Shown here: positions 1 through 13,286 of the stretch, piece by piece
Numbering within the stretch: position 1 is the stretch's first letter
Layout: the number at the start of each line of letters is the position of its first letter
Assembly: GCA_021372695.1 (NCBI GenBank)
Contig: JAJFTY010000190.1
Location: 1 to 13,286, forward strand
Direction of reading: 5' to 3'
Length of the DNA: 13,286 bases
From: Deltaproteobacteria bacterium
GTDB lineage: Bacteria > Desulfobacterota > Syntrophia > Syntrophales > UBA5619
Notes under the pieces: model-generated
Seen by the model: the letters and a program-made list of their open reading frames with translations, nothing else
What the model was told of the DNA's origin: nothing
The model's database searches: none
Translations under genes and position numbers: made by a program

Positions 1-141
1 ATGGCAGAGAAGATGAGAGGGGTAACCCTGACGGCGGATTGGTGTCCGAAGCCGGATTTTGTGTTGGGTCCGAAGGATGTGGATCGTGTGCAGACCTATC
101 TCGGGAGCAAAGTCTGGAAGAATCCGAAAATCGAGATCCGG
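1..141 (+). repeat. 141-bp terminal direct repeat, left copy
   Basis: Identical to 13146-13286 over all 141 bases. Exact identity running to both window ends is the signature of a circular assembly path; 141 is also the default largest k-mer of the MEGAHIT assembler. A true tandem duplication would look the same. Confidence 0.9.
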
Positions 142-1197
142 GAGTACGACATGCCCGAGCCGGGAGTCGAGGAGGTTCTGATCGAGGTCAAGGCCTGCGG
201 CATCTGCGGGAGCGACGTGCATATGGCGGAGCCCGACCGGGAGGGCTACATCCTCTACCCGGGCCTGACCGGTTTTCCCGCCATCATGGGGCACGAACTT
301 GCCGGCATCGTGGTGAAGGCCGGGAAGAACGCCTGCAGCAAGCGGACGAACCGGCCGTTCGCGGCGGGGGAAGAGGTCACCGTGGAGGAGATGTTCTGGT
401 GCGGCCAGTGCAAACCGTGCGCCGACGGATACCCGAACCAGTGTGAACAGCTCAACGAGATCGGTTTCAACATCCACGGGGCTTACACGACGTACATCGT
501 GGTGCCTTCCCGGGTCGTCTGGAGCCTGGCCCCGCTGAAGAGAAGGTACTCCGGCAAGGAGCTTTTCCTGGCGGGGAGTCTGGTGGAACCGACGTGCGTC
601 GCGTACAACGCGGTGATCGAATGCGGCGGCGGGATCCGGCCGGGCGACAACGTCGTGATCTGCGGGAGCGGCCCGATCGGGATGGGGGCGGTGGCGGTTC
701 TGAAGCGGGCGGGGGCGGCCCGGGTGATTCTTTCCGAACCGGTACCGGAGCGGGCGGCCATGGGCAGCAAGATGGGCGCCGATTACATCATCAATCCGGC
801 GAAGGAGGATTTTACCGAAAAGGTCCTGGAGTATACGGATGGCATGGGGGCAAGCCTCTATGTCGAGGCGACGGGCCTGCCGGCCCTGGTCTATCCGGGG
901 ATCGAACAGGTGATCTGGCGTGGGAAGACGATCGGGAGCACGGTGGTGATCGTGGCCCGGGCCGACGCAAAGATCCCGGTGACGGGCGAGGTGCTGCAGG
1001 TCAAGAAAGCCCGGATCGCAGGCGCGCAGGGCCACTCGGGATACGGGACCTTCCCGCGGGTCATCGAGTGCATGGCATCTGGGATGGACATGACCCCTCT
1101 GATCACAAAGAAGGTCGTGCTGGATGCGATTCCCGAACAGATCGTCCAGCTCCGCACCAACCGTTCGGATTGCAAGATCACCTACGTAGCCGATTAA
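1..1197 (+). CDS. iolM: Zn-dependent scyllo-inosose 3-dehydrogenase-like protein
   Basis: A 398-residue medium-chain zinc dehydrogenase. It probably oxidises 2-keto-myo-inositol (scyllo-inosose) to a diketo-inositol with NAD in the cytoplasm, as the Thermotoga IolM family does. Visible features are the catalytic zinc site (Cys69 in GICGSD, His98-Glu99 in GHE, Glu196), the four structural-zinc cysteines 134, 137, 140 and 148, and a Rossmann GSGPIG at 222-227. The N-terminal layout (MRGVTLTADW, LGPKDV, LGSKVW) and the ILYPGLTGFP and GHSGYGTFPRV segments match, from memory, the Thermotoga maritima enzyme rather than generic alcohol dehydrogenases. The first base of the window is the start codon. 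The ribosome binding site is seen only before the terminal copy (AGGAGGT at 13132-13138, 7 nt from ATG). Met5 is an alternative start, but its spacing from that site is poor. The next gene is convergent. Family assignment is firm; exact substrate is inferred. Confidence 0.85.
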   Translation: MAEKMRGVTLTADWCPKPDFVLGPKDVDRVQTYLGSKVWKNPKIEIREYDMPEPGVEEVLIEVKACGICGSDVHMAEPDREGYILYPGLTGFPAIMGHELAGIVVKAGKNACSKRTNRPFAAGEEVTVEEMFWCGQCKPCADGYPNQCEQLNEIGFNIHGAYTTYIVVPSRVVWSLAPLKRRYSGKELFLAGSLVEPTCVAYNAVIECGGGIRPGDNVVICGSGPIGMGAVAVLKRAGAARVILSEPVPERAAMGSKMGADYIINPAKEDFTEKVLEYTDGMGASLYVEATGLPALVYPGIEQVIWRGKTIGSTVVIVARADAKIPVTGEVLQVKKARIAGAQGHSGYGTFPRVIECMASGMDMTPLITKKVVLDAIPEQIVQLRTNRSDCKITYVAD

Positions 1198-1392
1198 TTA
1201 CGATGTCGTCATTATCGGCCGTGTGACGAGTGACTTCCTGATTTACAGGGGAGAATCATCGGGTTTCATCGGTGACGGGGCCCACTTCTCCGCCTTTGCC
1301 GCCCGAGGATATTCCGGAGATGTACGCGAAGGTTTATTCCCTCTCCGGGCCTTTCGTTGATGAGCTTCCGGATGCCACGGCCGATGATCGGC
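1198..1392. other. Convergent intergenic region, possible gene remnant
   Basis: This stretch separates the converging inosose dehydrogenase and phosphatase genes and contains no intact gene. In the + frame from 1199 to 1357 it reads open for 53 codons, beginning YDVVIIGRVTSDF. That resembles the first strand of PfkB-type sugar kinases such as IolC, but there is no ATG, GTG or TTG start, and the residues after it do not look like that family. It may be the broken start of a kinase gene or chance. Confidence 0.3.
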
Positions 1393-2112: not shown

Positions 2113-3114
2113 CTAGAGCCTCACAGGCGCTCCCGTTCGGAGGGATTGGCGCGCCGCCGTCGCGATCTGGATCCCGATGAGGCCGTCGCGCCCCGTGACC
2201 ACCGGCTCCTTGCCGTTCGCCACGGAATCCACGAAGGAGCGGATTTCCTCTGCATATGAGGCGCGGTAGCGCTCGGTGAAGAAATGGAGTAGGGGTGGGG
2301 TGCAATGGCCATTTTCGCCCATGAAATCCGTGGTGTCCGGAAGAGGATTGGATGCGGAAACCATTCCCCGTTCGCCGAAAACCTCAACCCGCTGGTCGTA
2401 CCCGAAGACAGCCTTGCACGAGTTCGAGATGATTCCTACAGCTCCGCGCGAGAACTTGAGGATTATCGCAAGGGTGTCGGCGTCGCCATGCTCCGCGAGC
2501 CAAGGGGCGATGAGCGTCGATCCCGCGACGTAGACCTCGACCACCTCGTCGCCGATGAGATGGCGCGCAAGGTCGAAGTCGTGAATCGTCATGTCCAAGA
2601 GAATCCCGCCGGAAAGCAGGTAGTATTCTTTGCCGGGAGGCTCGGGATCCCTGCTGATGATGTGGACGCTGTGCGGCGTGCCGAGCTTTCCCGCGTCGAG
2701 CTGTTCCTTGATGCGCCTGAAGTTCGCGTCGAATCTGCGGTTGAAGCCGACCTGCAGGAGAACGCCCGCGGCTTCCACCCGGTCGAGGGCCTTCTGCGCC
2801 TCGACCGGCTCCAATCCGAGCGGTTTCTCGCAGAAGATGCTCTTACCCGCGGCCGCGGCCGCGATCAGGATCTGCGCATGGCTCTCGGGCGTCGTGCAGA
2901 TGAGGACCGCCTCGACATCGCGATCCGCAAGAAGCTCTTCCATTCGGCCGTAGAACTTCGTCACCCCGAGCGAACGGGCGCATTCACGCGCCTTTTCGAC
3001 CTGAAGGTCGGCAACGGCCGCAAGCTCCGCGCCGGGAACATCCCGTACGATGTTCGTCGCATGGACGGTGCCGATCTCCCCGACCCCGATGATGCCGAGC
3101 TTGACTCTCCTCAT
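2113..3114 (-). CDS. iolG: Gfo/Idh/MocA dehydrogenase, probable inositol 2-dehydrogenase
   Basis: A 333-residue NAD(P)-dependent dehydrogenase that probably oxidises myo-inositol or a close relative to the 2-keto form. The Rossmann motif GVGEIG is at 10-15, the CEKPLG loop at 95-100, GFNRRFD at 123-129 and DMTIHDFD at 174-181. The predicted catalytic set Lys97, Asp174 and His178 lines up with Lys97, Asp172 and His176 known in Bacillus subtilis IolG. Length is usual for the family. The ATG overlaps the stop of the upstream TIM-barrel gene by 4 bases, so the two are translationally coupled; the phosphatase follows after 6 bases. The Gfo/Idh/MocA family is certain. Inositol as substrate is supported by the IolM-like and IolI-like neighbours, but another cyclitol or sugar is possible. 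A different, broken member of this family lies at 12870-13055. Confidence 0.8.
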   Translation of the reverse strand: MRRVKLGIIGVGEIGTVHATNIVRDVPGAELAAVADLQVEKARECARSLGVTKFYGRMEELLADRDVEAVLICTTPESHAQILIAAAAAGKSIFCEKPLGLEPVEAQKALDRVEAAGVLLQVGFNRRFDANFRRIKEQLDAGKLGTPHSVHIISRDPEPPGKEYYLLSGGILLDMTIHDFDLARHLIGDEVVEVYVAGSTLIAPWLAEHGDADTLAIILKFSRGAVGIISNSCKAVFGYDQRVEVFGERGMVSASNPLPDTTDFMGENGHCTPPLLHFFTERYRASYAEEIRSFVDSVANGKEPVVTGRDGLIGIQIATAARQSLRTGAPVRL

Positions 3115-3926
3115 GGCGTCTCCTTTCCAATCCAGCCGGACTCCCGAAGAAGGGATACCGCCCTTCGATAAGCGTCGCGCGCGACCTCCGCAGCATCCTG
3201 AAGGCCGTACTTGGGATGGAACACCTCCACGGACATCCCGCCCCGATAGCCGGTCTGACGGATCGCGTCCATGGCCTCCACCAAAGGCAGTTCCCCTTCA
3301 CCGGGAAGCACCCGGTCGGCGTCAACGAGTTCCTTGAGATTCTTTCCGTCGGTCAGGGCATCGGTGATATGGACAACCCCGATCAGTTCCGCCGGGAGGC
3401 GCCGGATCTGCTCCGGCGTTGCTCCCACGACGCTATAATGAAAAGTGTCAACGACGAGCTTCATCCCTGATCTCTCGGCCAGGCGCAACGACTCCTCGAA
3501 GGTGTTGAAAGGCCGTCCGGGAAAGCACATCATTTCCAAAAACAAAGAGACCTGGAAGGCTTCAGCCTCCTTCGAAAAGCGTTTCAGCCACGCAACGCCC
3601 TCTTCAAGGGAGAGGGGCCCTTTCGGGGCCACGGGACACACGGTGACTGCACCGATCGAAAGGCGCTGGGCATGCGTGAAGATCTCTCGGGCGCGCTCGA
3701 TCGTGAGGTCACCGAAAGCCTCTATCTCGTTCAAGGGCAACAGTGCAAGCCCGTACTTTTTTTGAACAGCCAGCGCTTCGCCGATCTGCAAGGGCGTACA
3801 GAGAGCAACGCGGGCAATCTCCGGCTCGTACGCGGAGAAACCCGCTGACGCGGCCTCGTGAAGTCCTTGCAGGAAACTTGCCTGGGGAATCGTGGCACCA
3901 TGGAGTCCAAGCTGTATGCTCACCAC
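3111..3926 (-). CDS. IolI-like TIM-barrel sugar isomerase/epimerase
   Basis: A 271-residue protein of the xylose isomerase-like TIM-barrel family (PF01261 type). Probable metal ligands are Glu131 (LFLEMM), Asp160 (VVDTFH), His186 (VVHITD) and Glu234 (SVEVFH). Their spacing is close to the Glu-Asp-His-Glu site of Bacillus IolI, the inosose isomerase. The RVLPGEGELPL segment is also typical of the IolI/IolE/IolH group. It probably isomerises or epimerises an inosose or keto-sugar in the cytoplasm. The start is GTG: an AGGAGG-type site (complement of 3933-3937) lies 6 bases before the GTG at 3926 and 9 before a second GTG at 3923, so either is possible. It is first in an operon with the IolG-like and phosphatase genes, behind a strong promoter with repeated operator-like sites. 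A dehydratase role is an alternative. Confidence 0.8.
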   Translation of the reverse strand: MVSIQLGLHGATIPQASFLQGLHEAASAGFSAYEPEIARVALCTPLQIGEALAVQKKYGLALLPLNEIEAFGDLTIERAREIFTHAQRLSIGAVTVCPVAPKGPLSLEEGVAWLKRFSKEAEAFQVSLFLEMMCFPGRPFNTFEESLRLAERSGMKLVVDTFHYSVVGATPEQIRRLPAELIGVVHITDALTDGKNLKELVDADRVLPGEGELPLVEAMDAIRQTGYRGGMSVEVFHPKYGLQDAAEVARDAYRRAVSLLRESGWIGKETP

Positions 3927-3945
3927 CGTCTGCCTCCTTTTTCAA

Positions 3946-3959
3946 ATGAAATTTACCTT
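3946..3959 (-). promoter_or_regulatory. Operator-like 14-bp repeat, leader copy
   Basis: On the minus strand this reads AAGGTAAATTTCAT, identical to the copy at 3989-4002. It lies in the predicted 5' leader of the IolI-like operon, roughly 20-30 bases after the expected transcription start. The two copies are 43 bp apart, about four helical turns, so a repressor could hold both. The binding protein is unknown; the LacI-family regulator at 11739-12752 is the obvious candidate in the window. Confidence 0.5.
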
Positions 3960-3978
3960 CAAAAATTTAAGGTTTTGC

Positions 3979-4007
3979 ATTAAATCATATGAAATTTACC
4001 TTGTCAA
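3979..4007 (-). promoter_or_regulatory. Sigma-70-type promoter of the IolI-IolG-phosphatase operon
   Basis: On the minus strand a perfect -35 box TTGACA (4007-4002) is followed by 17 bases and a -10 box TTTAAT (3984-3979), 5 of 6 to consensus. It lies about 50 bases before the GTG start of the IolI-like gene in an AT-rich stretch. A copy of the 14-bp operator-like repeat fills most of the spacer, which suggests repression by blocking RNA polymerase. Confidence 0.7.
3989..4002 (-). promoter_or_regulatory. Operator-like 14-bp repeat, promoter-spacer copy
   Basis: On the minus strand AAGGTAAATTTCAT begins at the last base of the -35 box and runs through the spacer towards the -10 box. It matches the leader copy at 3946-3959 in all 14 positions. 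A further AAGGT lies in the opposite orientation at 3969-3973, between the two copies, making an ACCTT-9-AAGGT inverted repeat with the leader copy. Confidence 0.5.
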
Positions 4008-4040
4008 ATCAAAAAACAAGAAATATATAGAACGGAAAAA

Positions 4041-4159: not shown

Positions 4160-5131
4160 ATGATTCATGTACAGGATATCGGCGTGAGTCTGAAAACCCC
4201 GGGGAATGTGTTCACTCCCCAGTTACTGGAGGTCGCCTTGGGGAGGCTGGCCCAACTCGGCTTCCCGCTGGTGGAAATCGACCCGAGCCTCTATCCGTTG
4301 ATCTTCGACGGGGAGCTGCGGCAGCGGCAGCTTGCCGACTTCCTCGGGGTGACGAGACGTTCCGGCCTGCGCTTCAGTGTCCATGGCCTCGACCGTCTCA
4401 ATCTCGCATACGATCCCCGGCACGAGCTCTGCAAAAAGATCATGCGCGCCCAAATCGAGCTCTGCACGGCGATAGGTGGGAGCCGGTTGGTGTACCACAG
4501 CGGCCTGCAGGCCCTCGAAAAGGTGAAAAGCGGAGTCCGGACCACGCTCCTCACGGCCCGGGAGCTGGAAGAGGGGGCGCAAAGAGAGGTTGCGGCGCTC
4601 AAGGAGCTTGCTCCCATTGCGGCAGACGCCGGAGTCGTCATCTGCATGGAAAACCTGGATCCCCATCTCTGGGAGTACGACATCATCCGGAGCTTCGGGC
4701 TGCCGAGCTCCGAGATCGACAGACACCTCGCGCGGCTGCGTATCGGCCCCATCGCGCGCCAGCTCGAAGCCATCAACCATTCCAGCGTCCGCATGACGCT
4801 CGATGTGGCTCACCTCTACCTTGCGTCACAGGACAGGGGTTTTTCGTATCTCGACGCGGTGAGCGAAGCTGCGCCATGGGTCCGGCATCTCCATGTGACC
4901 GACAACTTCGGCAGGCTCGACGCGGGATATCCGGTCGAACGGGAGCGCTGGGCGTTCGGCGAAGCGGACATGCACATGCCTCCCGGCTGGGGGAGCATTC
5001 CCTATTCCGAGGTTTTTGCGCGCCTGCCCGATTACCGGGACGATCTCATCCTGGAAATTCTGGCCGAATTCGATGACCACCTGGCCGAAGCACGGGCGAA
5101 CATGCGGTCCATTCTGGGCATCGCTCCCTGA
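4160..5131 (+). CDS. TIM-barrel protein with endonuclease IV-like metal site
   Basis: A 323-residue PF01261-type TIM-barrel protein, usually annotated as sugar phosphate isomerase/epimerase. In order it shows His75 (SVHGLDRLNLAYD), His113 (VYHSG), Glu164 (CMENLD), Asp215 and His218 (TLDVAHLYLASQD), His245 (HLHVTD), Asp270 and His272 (EADMHMPPGWG) and Glu299 (LILEIL). That is the same order of nine ligands as the three-zinc site of Escherichia coli endonuclease IV. A phosphodiesterase or hydrolase role is therefore as plausible as isomerisation. It is longer than endonuclease IV, and a catabolic context argues against DNA repair. The start is set by AAGGAG at 4149-4154, 5 bases before ATG. It is transcribed away from the IolI operon and converges on the ABC operon, ending 39 bases from it. 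Substrate is unknown. Confidence 0.75.
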   Translation: MIHVQDIGVSLKTPGNVFTPQLLEVALGRLAQLGFPLVEIDPSLYPLIFDGELRQRQLADFLGVTRRSGLRFSVHGLDRLNLAYDPRHELCKKIMRAQIELCTAIGGSRLVYHSGLQALEKVKSGVRTTLLTARELEEGAQREVAALKELAPIAADAGVVICMENLDPHLWEYDIIRSFGLPSSEIDRHLARLRIGPIARQLEAINHSSVRMTLDVAHLYLASQDRGFSYLDAVSEAAPWVRHLHVTDNFGRLDAGYPVERERWAFGEADMHMPPGWGSIPYSEVFARLPDYRDDLILEILAEFDDHLAEARANMRSILGIAP

Positions 5132-8017: not shown

Positions 8018-9124
8018 CTATTTCGGTATGATTTCAAGCGCGTGCTGCTTGATGTAGGTGATGGCGTCCGCGTTGACCCGCTCCGCCGGAATGACCGCCT
8101 TTTTGGCAACTTCGATCCTGGGGATCTGTTCCCAGACAATGCCGGGCACCTTTTCGTTGATCATGGTGCTGTTGTACTGCCACATCGTGCTGACCAGACG
8201 GCTCTGCTGGTCATCGGAAAGCAGGTAGTTGATGAGCTTGTAGGCAAGGAGCTTGTTGTCCGCGGGGATGTTGGCCGGCACGACAAAGTATGCCTGGCCG
8301 CCGGCATCGATGCCCTCGCTCAGGAACATGGCCTTGGTGGTCGGGGGCATGGTCCCCTGCCGCGCCGACCAGAGCGAGTAGTCCATCGCGTACAGCGTGA
8401 TCCAGGTGTCGCCGGCGTTGAAGTTCTCGAACATGTTGGTCGGTTCGGAGGCCAGCGGCAGTTGGGAATAGGTGTAGAAATCCTTTAGCTTGGCCCAAGC
8501 ATCCTGGAAATCTTTTGCCTGGGGATTGAACTTTTTGGAAAAATCGGTAAAGGCGTTCAGGAAAGCAAACGGCTGCCGCCAACCCGCGCCCGACTTCGCA
8601 TCGGGTCGTATGTAGCCGATGTGGCCTTTGAACTCACCGCGTCGATCGTAGAACTCCTTCCAGGATTTTGGCGGCTTCTTGACGAAATTGGAGTTGTAGA
8701 TCAGGGCGTAGGTGCTGAACCAATACGCGGCCGCCTTGTTCGTCACGTCGACCCCCTCCGTCGATTGGAGAGAGGGGTCGATCTTGGCCATGTTCGGGAT
8801 TTTGTCCTTGGTGAGGGTGTCGAGCGGAATCTGGCTGGTCTTGACGAAGAGAGCGGCCGACTTGGGGAACAATACGGTGATGTCGCCCTGGCCCGGTTTC
8901 CAGGCTTTCATGCGCTCGATAATCTCCGCGTCACTTCCCACGACATACTTGATCTTGACTCCCAAGGCCTCCTCAGCCGCCGGCAGCGCTATCGTCTGGA
9001 ACCACTGCTGGAAATTGGCGCCGGACTGACTGTCCATGAAGATGATTTCTTTGGGCGCCGCGAAAGAGCTTGCTGCAACGAGAACGATAGCGAGAACAAA
9101 GAGAATAGTGAATAGCTTTTTCAT
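8018..9124 (-). CDS. Periplasmic solute-binding protein of ABC importer
   Basis: A 368-residue extracellular solute-binding protein that delivers the substrate to the two permeases. Residues 1-22 form a signal peptide (MKK, a hydrophobic core, then SSFAA before PKE) with no lipobox cysteine, so it should be free in the periplasm. The rest looks like the iron/polyamine-type binding-protein class rather than the RbsB type normally used for inositol and ribose; I cannot name the ligand. The ATG is supported by AAGGGGGG (complement of 9130-9137), 5 bases upstream. It is first in its operon (binding protein, permease, permease, ATPase), divergent from the aminotransferase operon across a shared promoter region. 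Co-regulation with the cyclitol genes is likely but unproven. Confidence 0.9.
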
Positions 9125-11738: not shown

Positions 11739-12752
11739 ATGGCCGTTACCATGAAGAAGATCGCCGAGGCCCAGGGAGTCAGCATAGCCACCGTGTCGCG
11801 CGTCCTTTCCGGATCCGAGGACAGCGTCTCCGACGAGGTACGCCGCTCGATTGTGGAGACCGCAAAACGTCTGGGATACGAGCCGCGGAAGAAGATTGGC
11901 CGCACGGTGGCGTTCCTCATCGACACGGAGATGTTCAACCTCTCCAGCCTCTTTTATACGAACATCATCTCCGCCGCGGAGAAAGAGGTGGCGGCCCGGA
12001 AATTCTTCTTCCAGTTCAGCGCGATCTCGAGCAGCGAGATCCCGCTCAACCGGCTCAATCTCAAATTCAACGATCTGGCGGGCGTCGTGATCGTCGGAAC
12101 CTACGACCGCGAATTCCTGATCCGCCTGCGCACCCAGCGCATCCCCGTCATTCTCCTGGACTACGCAGTCCCGACGGAGGACATCGATGCCATCCTGGTA
12201 GACAACGTCGATGGAATCATGAAAGCGGGAAAGCATCTTGCCGAGCTCGGCCATACGCGCGTTGCCTACATCTCGGGGACCATCGACGGCCTCTCCGCGC
12301 AGGAACGCCGGCACGGGTTCAACCTTGCGCGAGCCGCTTATGGATTTATCGAGGAGCCCGATCTCGTGGAGGAATGCCCCGAATCGATGTCGGGCGGTTT
12401 CGAGGCGATGCAGCGCATCCTGGGGCGGCGCGATGCAAGGCGACCGACAGCAGTGATCGCCTACAACGACATGGTGGCCATCGGCGCGATGGACGCGATC
12501 AAACAGCAGGGACTCGTCATCCCCGGGGACATGAGCATCGTGGGCTTTGATGACCTCTCCCTCTCCGCGGAAGTGATGCCTCCCCTCACCACCGTGCAGG
12601 TCCCAAAGGAGTTGATGGGCAAGCTCGCAGTGGAGACGCTCTTCCAAGCCATTTCGGGAAAGTCGCATTTCACGCGAAAGATCCTGCTCCCCACGATGCT
12701 CGTCGTTCGCGAATCCACGGCAGCTCCGAATATCAACGGCATTGACAGGTAG
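11739..12752 (+). CDS. LacI-family transcriptional regulator
   Basis: A 337-residue LacI/GalR-type regulator. The N-terminal helix-turn-helix (about residues 4-24: TMKKIAEAQGVSIATVSRVL) and the hinge region up to KRLGYEPRKK bind DNA. The remainder, from GRTVAFLID, is a periplasmic-binding-protein-like sensor domain with the usual HLAELGHTRVAYISG and IVGFDDL segments. It probably represses the locus until a cyclitol or sugar inducer binds. It is the third gene of the aminotransferase operon, so it may control its own synthesis. The ATG at 11739 has AAAGGA upstream; Met5 is an alternative start. Its operators are not known; the repeats near 3946-4002 and 9311-9356 are candidates. Confidence 0.92.
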   Translation: MAVTMKKIAEAQGVSIATVSRVLSGSEDSVSDEVRRSIVETAKRLGYEPRKKIGRTVAFLIDTEMFNLSSLFYTNIISAAEKEVAARKFFFQFSAISSSEIPLNRLNLKFNDLAGVVIVGTYDREFLIRLRTQRIPVILLDYAVPTEDIDAILVDNVDGIMKAGKHLAELGHTRVAYISGTIDGLSAQERRHGFNLARAAYGFIEEPDLVEECPESMSGGFEAMQRILGRRDARRPTAVIAYNDMVAIGAMDAIKQQGLVIPGDMSIVGFDDLSLSAEVMPPLTTVQVPKELMGKLAVETLFQAISGKSHFTRKILLPTMLVVRESTAAPNINGIDR

Positions 12753-12869
12753 TTCGTCCTGAAAATGCAGTTTCCGGGCTGCGTAAACATTGAGTCAGCT
12801 TTTTGAAAACTGAAGAAAGATGTTGAAAAGAGGTTGAATTCGGACGTCAGCTGAATTGGTTTGTCTCTT
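12753..12869. other. Non-coding stretch after the regulator, probable junction
   Basis: About 115 bases with no gene, no convincing terminator and lower GC than the flanks. GTCAGCT occurs twice. The next bases resume in the middle of a dehydrogenase reading frame, so the break point between two DNA segments probably lies near the right end of this stretch. A stop codon in that frame at 12852-12854 closes it upstream. Confidence 0.4.
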
Positions 12870-13055
12870 AAACCCCTCTTCTTCTTCCTGGAACGGTATG
12901 AAGAAGCCTACCTCGCCGCAATGACGGAGTCTATCCAGGGCATCCGGGAAAACAGGGTGCCCGCGGTGGGTGGCTTGGGCGACAGGATCTCCGTGGCAAT
13001 GGGTCACGCGGCGCTGGAATTCCTGAAGAGCGGAAATTTTGTGCAAGTCAAATGA
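12870..13055 (+). pseudogene. C-terminal remnant of a Gfo/Idh/MocA (IolG-like) dehydrogenase
   Basis: About 61 codons ending at TGA 13053-13055. They read KPLFFFLERYEEAYLAAM and continue with ESIQGIRENRVPAVGGLGDRI and a short tail. This is the usual last helix-and-tail region of Gfo/Idh/MocA dehydrogenases such as IolG; compare HFFTERYRASYAEEI in the intact gene at 2113-3114. The Rossmann domain and catalytic residues are absent, and the frame is closed by a stop at 12852. Similarity to the intact copy is only moderate, so it is a remnant of a different paralogue. It lies directly upstream of the terminal IolM start, the order expected of an iolG-iolM operon cut in half. A TTG at 12861 could formally start a 64-residue peptide, but no ribosome site supports it. 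Confidence 0.7.
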
Positions 13056-13131
13056 AGAAATGGCATGGGCGGCTCAATCACATGCCCTTGACGGCTGGAT
13101 GATCCGGCTGGAAATAATAATAATTCGGCAG

Positions 13132-13138
13132 AGGAGGT
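13132..13138 (+). promoter_or_regulatory. Ribosome binding site of the terminal iolM copy
   Basis: AGGAGGT lies 7 bases before the ATG at 13146. Because 13146-13286 equals 1-141, this is also the natural ribosome site of the gene at position 1 if the sequence is circular or tandemly repeated. Confidence 0.8.
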
Positions 13139-13145
13139 AAGTCAG

Positions 13146-13286
13146 ATGGCAGAGAAGATGAGAGGGGTAACCCTGACGGCGGATTGGTGTCCGAAGCCGG
13201 ATTTTGTGTTGGGTCCGAAGGATGTGGATCGTGTGCAGACCTATCTCGGGAGCAAAGTCTGGAAGAATCCGAAAATCGAGATCCGG
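13146..13286 (+). CDS. iolM: Partial iolM copy (first 47 codons), identical to window start
   Basis: The first 47 codons of the scyllo-inosose dehydrogenase-like gene, cut by the window end. Every base equals positions 1-141. It is most simply the overlap of a circular or tandem assembly rather than a second gene. See the entry at 1-1197 for function. Confidence 0.85.
   Translation, partial: MAEKMRGVTLTADWCPKPDFVLGPKDVDRVQTYLGSKVWKNPKIEIR
13146..13286 (+). repeat. 141-bp terminal direct repeat, right copy
   Basis: Right-hand copy of the repeat at 1-141. Joining the two gives a 13,145-bp circle in which the dehydrogenase gene regains its ribosome binding site. Confidence 0.9.

What the first reader, a model, noticed from the sequence alone, without database searches (positions are those of the whole stretch)
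13146..13286. Window closes on itself: exact 141-bp terminal repeat implies a circle or tandem array
Bases 13146-13286 equal 1-141 exactly, and the repeat touches both ends. On closing, iolM gains the AGGAGGT site at 13132-13138. The resulting 13,145-bp unit has no replication, partition, mobilisation, recombinase or phage gene, so a normal plasmid is unlikely. Remaining options are a tandemly amplified chromosomal catabolic island, an excised circle, or an assembly loop. The exact k-mer-like length (141) favours a graph-derived overlap.
Basis: partly seen in the sequence, partly recalled or inferred. Interest (0 to 1): 0.7.

Follow-up and report, generated by a model that had tools for sequence, protein, structure and literature searches.

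The report
Assembler overlap closing a contig loop
The two ends of this DNA piece match over exactly 141 letters, most likely because the assembly program writes that overlap when it closes a loop in its graph, so the match is probably not a repeat in the cell's DNA and does not by itself show a plasmid.

Summary
In detail: bases 1-141 equal 13146-13286 exactly, and 141 is the only length at which the window's start equals its end. 141 is the last k in a MEGAHIT k-list quoted in the COBRA paper, which gives maxK as MEGAHIT's end-overlap length. In simulated k=141 graphs a 13,286/141 contig arose from 4 of 8 tested truths: a circle, an array lacking one or both flanks in the graph (two cases), and a direct repeat of exactly 141 bp. 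A tandem duplication with both flanks, a chromosomal copy plus a circle, and 300- or 1197-bp dispersed repeats did not give it. The repeat is best read as a graph overlap on a closed 13,145-bp path.

The join looks native: 12882-13286 aligns to the iolG-iolM junction of a Syntrophaceae MAG (71%). No plasmid, phage or recombinase family was found among the 12 large ORFs. A real circle or amplified array stays possible; only reads can decide.

The parts
1..141 (+). Left copy of the terminal overlap: first 47 codons of iolM
   Evidence: identical to 13146-13286
13146..13286 (+). Right copy of the terminal overlap (141 bp), read as an assembler k-mer overlap
   Evidence: simulation; maxK rule
1..1197 (+). 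iolM, scyllo-inosose 3-dehydrogenase, intact
   Evidence: NCBIfam NF041097, 494.8 bits against cut-off 450; 90% aa and 85% nt to L001; dN 0.052, dS 0.686
1198..1376 (+). Debris of a PfkB-family kinase gene: two pieces of the L001 gene with the part between them missing, starting at the base after the iolM stop
   Evidence: 1198-1306 to L001 13358-13466 at 82%, 1293-1376 to L001 13653-13733 at 73%; L001 gene is PF00294
2113..3114 (-). Second, intact iolG (inositol 2-dehydrogenase)
   Evidence: TIGR04380, 403.6 bits against cut-off 355
11739..12752 (+). LacI-family regulator; its TAG stop (12750-12752) coincides with the first bases of the IS match
   Evidence: PF00356, PF13377; IS alignment starts at 12750
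12750..12837 (+). End of a ~1.6-kb insertion sequence (remnant)
   Evidence: 83% to the IS in L097; L097 transposase PF05598, PF01609
12838..12868 (+). Probable internal piece of the same IS, so the IS is internally deleted
   Evidence: 27 of 31 identical to the L097 copy; 0 of 2000 shuffles reached 27; seen in 1 of 5 copies compared
12870..13055 (+). Last 61 codons and stop of a second iolG-like gene; the rest is missing
   Evidence: (62% aa to the end of L001 8926-9936)
13132..13138 (+). AGGAGGT, ribosome-binding-site-like, 7 nt before the right copy of the iolM ATG
   Evidence: sequence

Best explanation
The 141-bp terminal repeat is the k-mer overlap that a de Bruijn assembler (MEGAHIT type, final k 141) leaves when it linearises a path returning to its starting k-mer; the DNA carries iolM once per 13,145-bp unit. 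The unit is most likely a stretch of bacterial chromosome: a catabolic and transport cluster beside an iolM locus that was eroded by deletions and an old insertion sequence. The path most likely closed because links to the flanks were lost from the graph, through a local duplication whose flanks were pruned or through strain-mixture simplification, rather than because the segment is an autonomous circle. Shown: the overlap and its exact length, the native join, the gene remnants, the IS end. Inferred: the assembler, the chromosomal origin, the cause of closure.
For: Only border is 141. MEGAHIT k-list ending in 141 and end overlap of maxK (passages). Circular assemblies can carry direct repeats of k-mer length as a technical artefact (passage, about phage concatemers). 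Closed path at k=141 gives 13,286 bp with a 141-bp border. Join 12882-13286 is colinear with L001. Three relatives' contig names start k141. No replicon family in the ORFs scanned. Eroded iolG and pfkB and an IS remnant around iolM.
Against: No reads, no assembler record and no host genome are available. The contig starts exactly at the iolM ATG, about 5 in 13,145 for a random break, judged after the fact; k-mer order does not explain it. Loss of flank links has to be assumed: with both flanks in the graph the contig would not form. The host and the rest of the cluster were not found in genomes.
Confidence: 0.65

Rival explanations
1. A real extrachromosomal circle of 13,145 bp, excised from a chromosome, perhaps with the IS remnant/iolG joint at 12868-12870 as its closing point.
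For: A circle gives exactly this contig; the joint fuses an IS piece to a truncated gene.
Against: No replication or mobilisation family in the ORFs scanned. A circle together with its chromosomal copy does not give this contig, so the chromosomal copy would have to be absent or pruned. The IS piece is decayed, not an active element. No match to the joint or iolM patterns in viral contigs.
Confidence: 0.17
2. A tandem amplified chromosomal array with many units, so that one or both flanks were pruned as low coverage.
For: Arrays lacking one or both flanks in the graph give this contig. With one flank kept, the contig would start exactly at a branch point, which could explain the start at the ATG.
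Against: A two-copy duplication with both flanks does not give it. No depth data. No active IS or long flanking repeat in the window.
Confidence: 0.14
3. A chromosomal direct repeat of exactly 141 bp, such as two loci sharing just the first 141 bp of iolM.
For: Gives the same contig in simulation.
Against: The shared length must equal k exactly; 300 or 1197 bp does not give it. Both ends align to one L001 locus.
Confidence: 0.04

Closest known systems
maxK end overlap of looped de Bruijn contigs (MEGAHIT/metaSPAdes; 'self_circular' in COBRA)
   Same: Both ends share one exact stretch whose length equals a MEGAHIT final k
   Different: The assembler and k of this record are not known; inferred from the length
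Direct-terminal-repeat circular contigs of plasmids and phages
   Same: Exact terminal direct repeat, 50-200 bp range used in PMC8008677 (passages)
   Different: No plasmid or phage hallmark family in the ORFs scanned
Thermotoga-type inositol locus with iolM (TM0411-TM0416 operon named in PMC5931981, passage)
   Same: iolM above NCBIfam cut-off; intact iolG in the unit
   Different: Creatininase-like gene next to iolM in 34 of 47 loci is missing beside it here; the two TIM-barrel proteins do not reach the IolO cut-off. That the creatininase-like gene is IolN is recalled
~1.6-kb DDE insertion sequence of L097 (PF05598, PF01609)
   Same: 88-bp end at 83% and a probable 31-bp internal piece, same order and orientation
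   Different: No transposase frame and no second end beside it in the window; a remnant only

Membership tests
Assembler loop overlap | Terminal overlap is exact, single, and equals a final k in use | tested here: met
Assembler loop overlap | A closed path at that k reproduces contig length and overlap | tested here: met
   (forward strand, error-free, random flanks, no MEGAHIT pruning)
Assembler loop overlap | Record assembled with that program and k | not testable with these tools
   no record or reads held for the window
Plasmid | Replication, partition or mobilisation gene | tested here: not met
   Pfam 12 of 12 ORFs, NCBIfam 10 of 12, PHROGs 10 of 12; small ORFs not screened
Phage | Structural, terminase or integrase gene | tested here: not met
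   PHROGs 10 of 12 ORFs; no megablast match of the window in phages
Tandem amplified array | Several units on one molecule and raised depth | not testable with these tools
   needs reads
scyllo-inosose 3-dehydrogenase (IolM) | NCBIfam NF041097 above its cut-off | tested here: met
   494.8 against 450
Insertion sequence of L097 type | Two ends and a transposase gene | tested here: not met
   one end and a probable internal piece only; remnant

The most novel reading that the evidence does not exclude
A plasmid-free 13.1-kb chromosomal segment with an inositol-type catabolic and transport cluster that circularises or amplifies in an uncultured anaerobe, joined beside an insertion-sequence scar, raising gene dose without any replication gene of its own.
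Probability: 0.2. Interest if true: 0.5.

Novelty: not a real feature. Interest (0 to 1): 0.15.

Why it matters
Circular metagenome contigs are often taken as plasmids or complete phages because of their terminal repeats. Here an overlap that equals an assembler k, no replicon family and eroded neighbours argue for a graph loop until reads say otherwise. If the circle or array were real, it would be amplification of a catabolic cluster in an uncultured anaerobe, seen directly.

Tried and rejected
Tandem duplication with both flanks in the graph, a chromosomal copy plus a circle, and dispersed iolM copies sharing 300 or 1197 bp: rejected, since none gave a 13,286/141 contig. The simulation is forward strand only, error-free, with random flanks and without MEGAHIT's own pruning.

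rRNA-operon leader as the identity of 12750-12837 (my note): rejected. Rfam at gathering thresholds found nothing in the 10 loci scanned, and the frame after the element in L097 is a DDE transposase.

Break point set by k-mer sort order: not supported.

Finding the rest of the cluster in a genome failed. Binding protein: 0 of 155 in the class of G001; 4 of 4 by handle, all weak, at most 38.9 bits; 24 of 392 in the phylum of G156, best 35.2 bits; 19 of 395 in the phylum of G001, best 39.6 bits; 0 of 9 in the order of G157 at E 1e-30. Some genomes were searched more than once, and the tool says an empty answer shows little. iolM rang at E 1e-60 in 1 of the same 155, G001. Proteins up to 94% identical to the binding protein and to the 4160-5131 protein exist in metagenomes, but their contigs could not be fetched.

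Host lineage: the iolM end and the IS point to the class of the Syntrophaceae MAG, but beyond loci already fetched the IS was sought only there, and the best-named relative of the binding protein is a Spirochaetia MAG at 84%. Not settled.

Rfam on the window: 0. PADLOC, 10 proteins: one weak hit to LacI (18.4 bits) and ABC-ATPase hits, the best mad3 at 91.3 bits; read as general ATPase similarity. Promoter and terminator scan 12700-13286: one of each, near chance.

Papers: PMC10914622, PMC8008677 and PMC5931981 are used from passages. Passages of PMC11443906, PMC9246712, PMC7981956, PMC3750489 and PMC8269221 were seen and not relied on.

Full report
Observation. The window's first and last 141 bases are identical and no other prefix equals a suffix. 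With minimum length 20 the repeat finder gives this pair and one 25-bp pair.

What 141 means. The COBRA paper (PMC10914622, passages) says MEGAHIT and metaSPAdes leave end sequences of length maxK, and runs MEGAHIT with a k-list ending in 141. PMC8008677 (passages) says direct repeats of k-mer length are a technical artefact where circular assemblies come from phage concatemers. Three of the 50 relatives fetched have contig names with k141 (L005, L022, L039). I built edge-centred graphs at k=141 for eight possible truths. A 13,286-bp contig with a 141-bp border arose for four: a circle, an array without its right flank, an array without either flank, and a direct repeat of exactly 141 bp. It did not arise for a two-copy tandem duplication with both flanks, a chromosomal copy plus a circle, or copies sharing 300 or 1197 bp. 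The repeat is therefore best read as an assembler overlap on a closed path, with iolM once per unit. The assembler itself is inferred.

The join is native gene order. The closest iolM locus in the genome scan is L001, a Syntrophaceae MAG (fen_1170), 90% identical in protein; the next are 77%. Window 12882-13286 aligns in one piece to L001 9757-10141 (71%, 22 gap positions in 406), covering the end of an iolG-like gene, the intergenic stretch and the start of iolM. Window 1-1194 aligns to L001 10001-11194 at 85%. Both contig ends belong to one iolM gene.

The neighbourhood is eroded. In L001 the order is iolG-like, iolM, creatininase-like (PF02633), TIM-barrel (PF01261), PfkB (PF00294). In the window only the last 61 codons of the iolG-like gene remain (12870-13055), and PfkB debris starts at the base after the iolM stop, in two pieces (1198-1306 and 1293-1376). 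A creatininase-like gene lies within 400 bp of iolM in 34 of 47 loci, and an iolG-like gene ends within 400 bp upstream in 9 of 47 (my count; L048-L050, at 30% identity or less, were dropped; several loci are cut by contig ends). Loss in the window is therefore the likelier direction. iolM is conserved (dN 0.052, dS 0.686 against L001), and an intact iolG lies at 2113-3114.

An insertion-sequence remnant. Window 12750-12837 matches the end of a ~1.6-kb insertion sequence in L097 at 83%. In the listed rows this end appears at 9 places in 7 genomes of the L001 class, and at one place in G001; one search scored two candidates per genome and cut its list, so these are lower bounds. The 10 loci examined for it, nine fetched because they matched plus L059, all show it. 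L097 carries a 457-aa DDE transposase (PF05598, PF01609). Window 12838-12868 matches a 31-bp internal piece of L097 (27 of 31; 0 of 2000 shuffles reached this), but only 1 of 5 copies compared shows it; one of the other four, L098, ends before that part. The piece abuts the iolG fragment, and the IS match begins with the LacI stop codon. An IS inserted at the end of lacI, then a deletion from inside it into iolG, would give this; the order is inferred. The same joint could be where a circle or array closed, and the sequence cannot tell these apart.

Replicon test. The 12 large ORFs are metabolic, transport or regulatory. PHROGs gave no structural or integrase family for the 10 scanned; some matches are to families of unknown function. 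Viral contigs gave no match to the iolM patterns or to the joint, and phages none to the window by megablast or to the binding protein. In plasmids, the 20 listed of 21 DNA matches lie in the ABC-ATPase gene, and protein matches are below 60% identity (17 records; 3933 records).

Against this reading. The contig begins exactly at the iolM ATG; with five plus-strand gene starts a random break would do so about 5 times in 13,145, judged after the fact. k-mer order does not explain it. A branch left at that k-mer would, which is the array with one flank lost. No genome is held for the window, the rest of the cluster was found in no searched genome beyond weak matches, and there are no reads. A true circle or an amplified array stays open.

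Verdict. The terminal repeat is most likely an assembly overlap and the unit most likely chromosomal. Interest is low as it stands, moderate if reads show a real circle or array.

Noticed in passing
3942-3966 and 3985-4009: Two 25-bp direct repeats (84% alike) between the divergent genes at 3111-3926 and 4160-5131; the shared TGAAATTTACCTT occurs only there in the window at up to 2 mismatches. A regulator site, perhaps for the LacI protein, is a guess.
   Followed up: partly
window 1: The contig begins exactly at the natural iolM start codon; neither k-mer order nor anything else tested explains it.
   Followed up: partly
window 8018-9124 and 4160-5131: The nearest ncbi relatives of the binding protein (P0123, 85%) and of the TIM-barrel protein (P0258, 77%) both list a longest contig of 14,097 bp, so they may lie on one contig. 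It could not be fetched.
   Followed up: no
L001 10001-11194 (G001): iolM was found in 1 of 155 genomes of this class at E 1e-60, which suggests gain by transfer in that lineage.
   Followed up: no
window 1293-1306: The two pfkB pieces overlap in a 14-bp stretch that resembles both sides of the missing part, as a deletion between short repeats would leave.
   Followed up: partly
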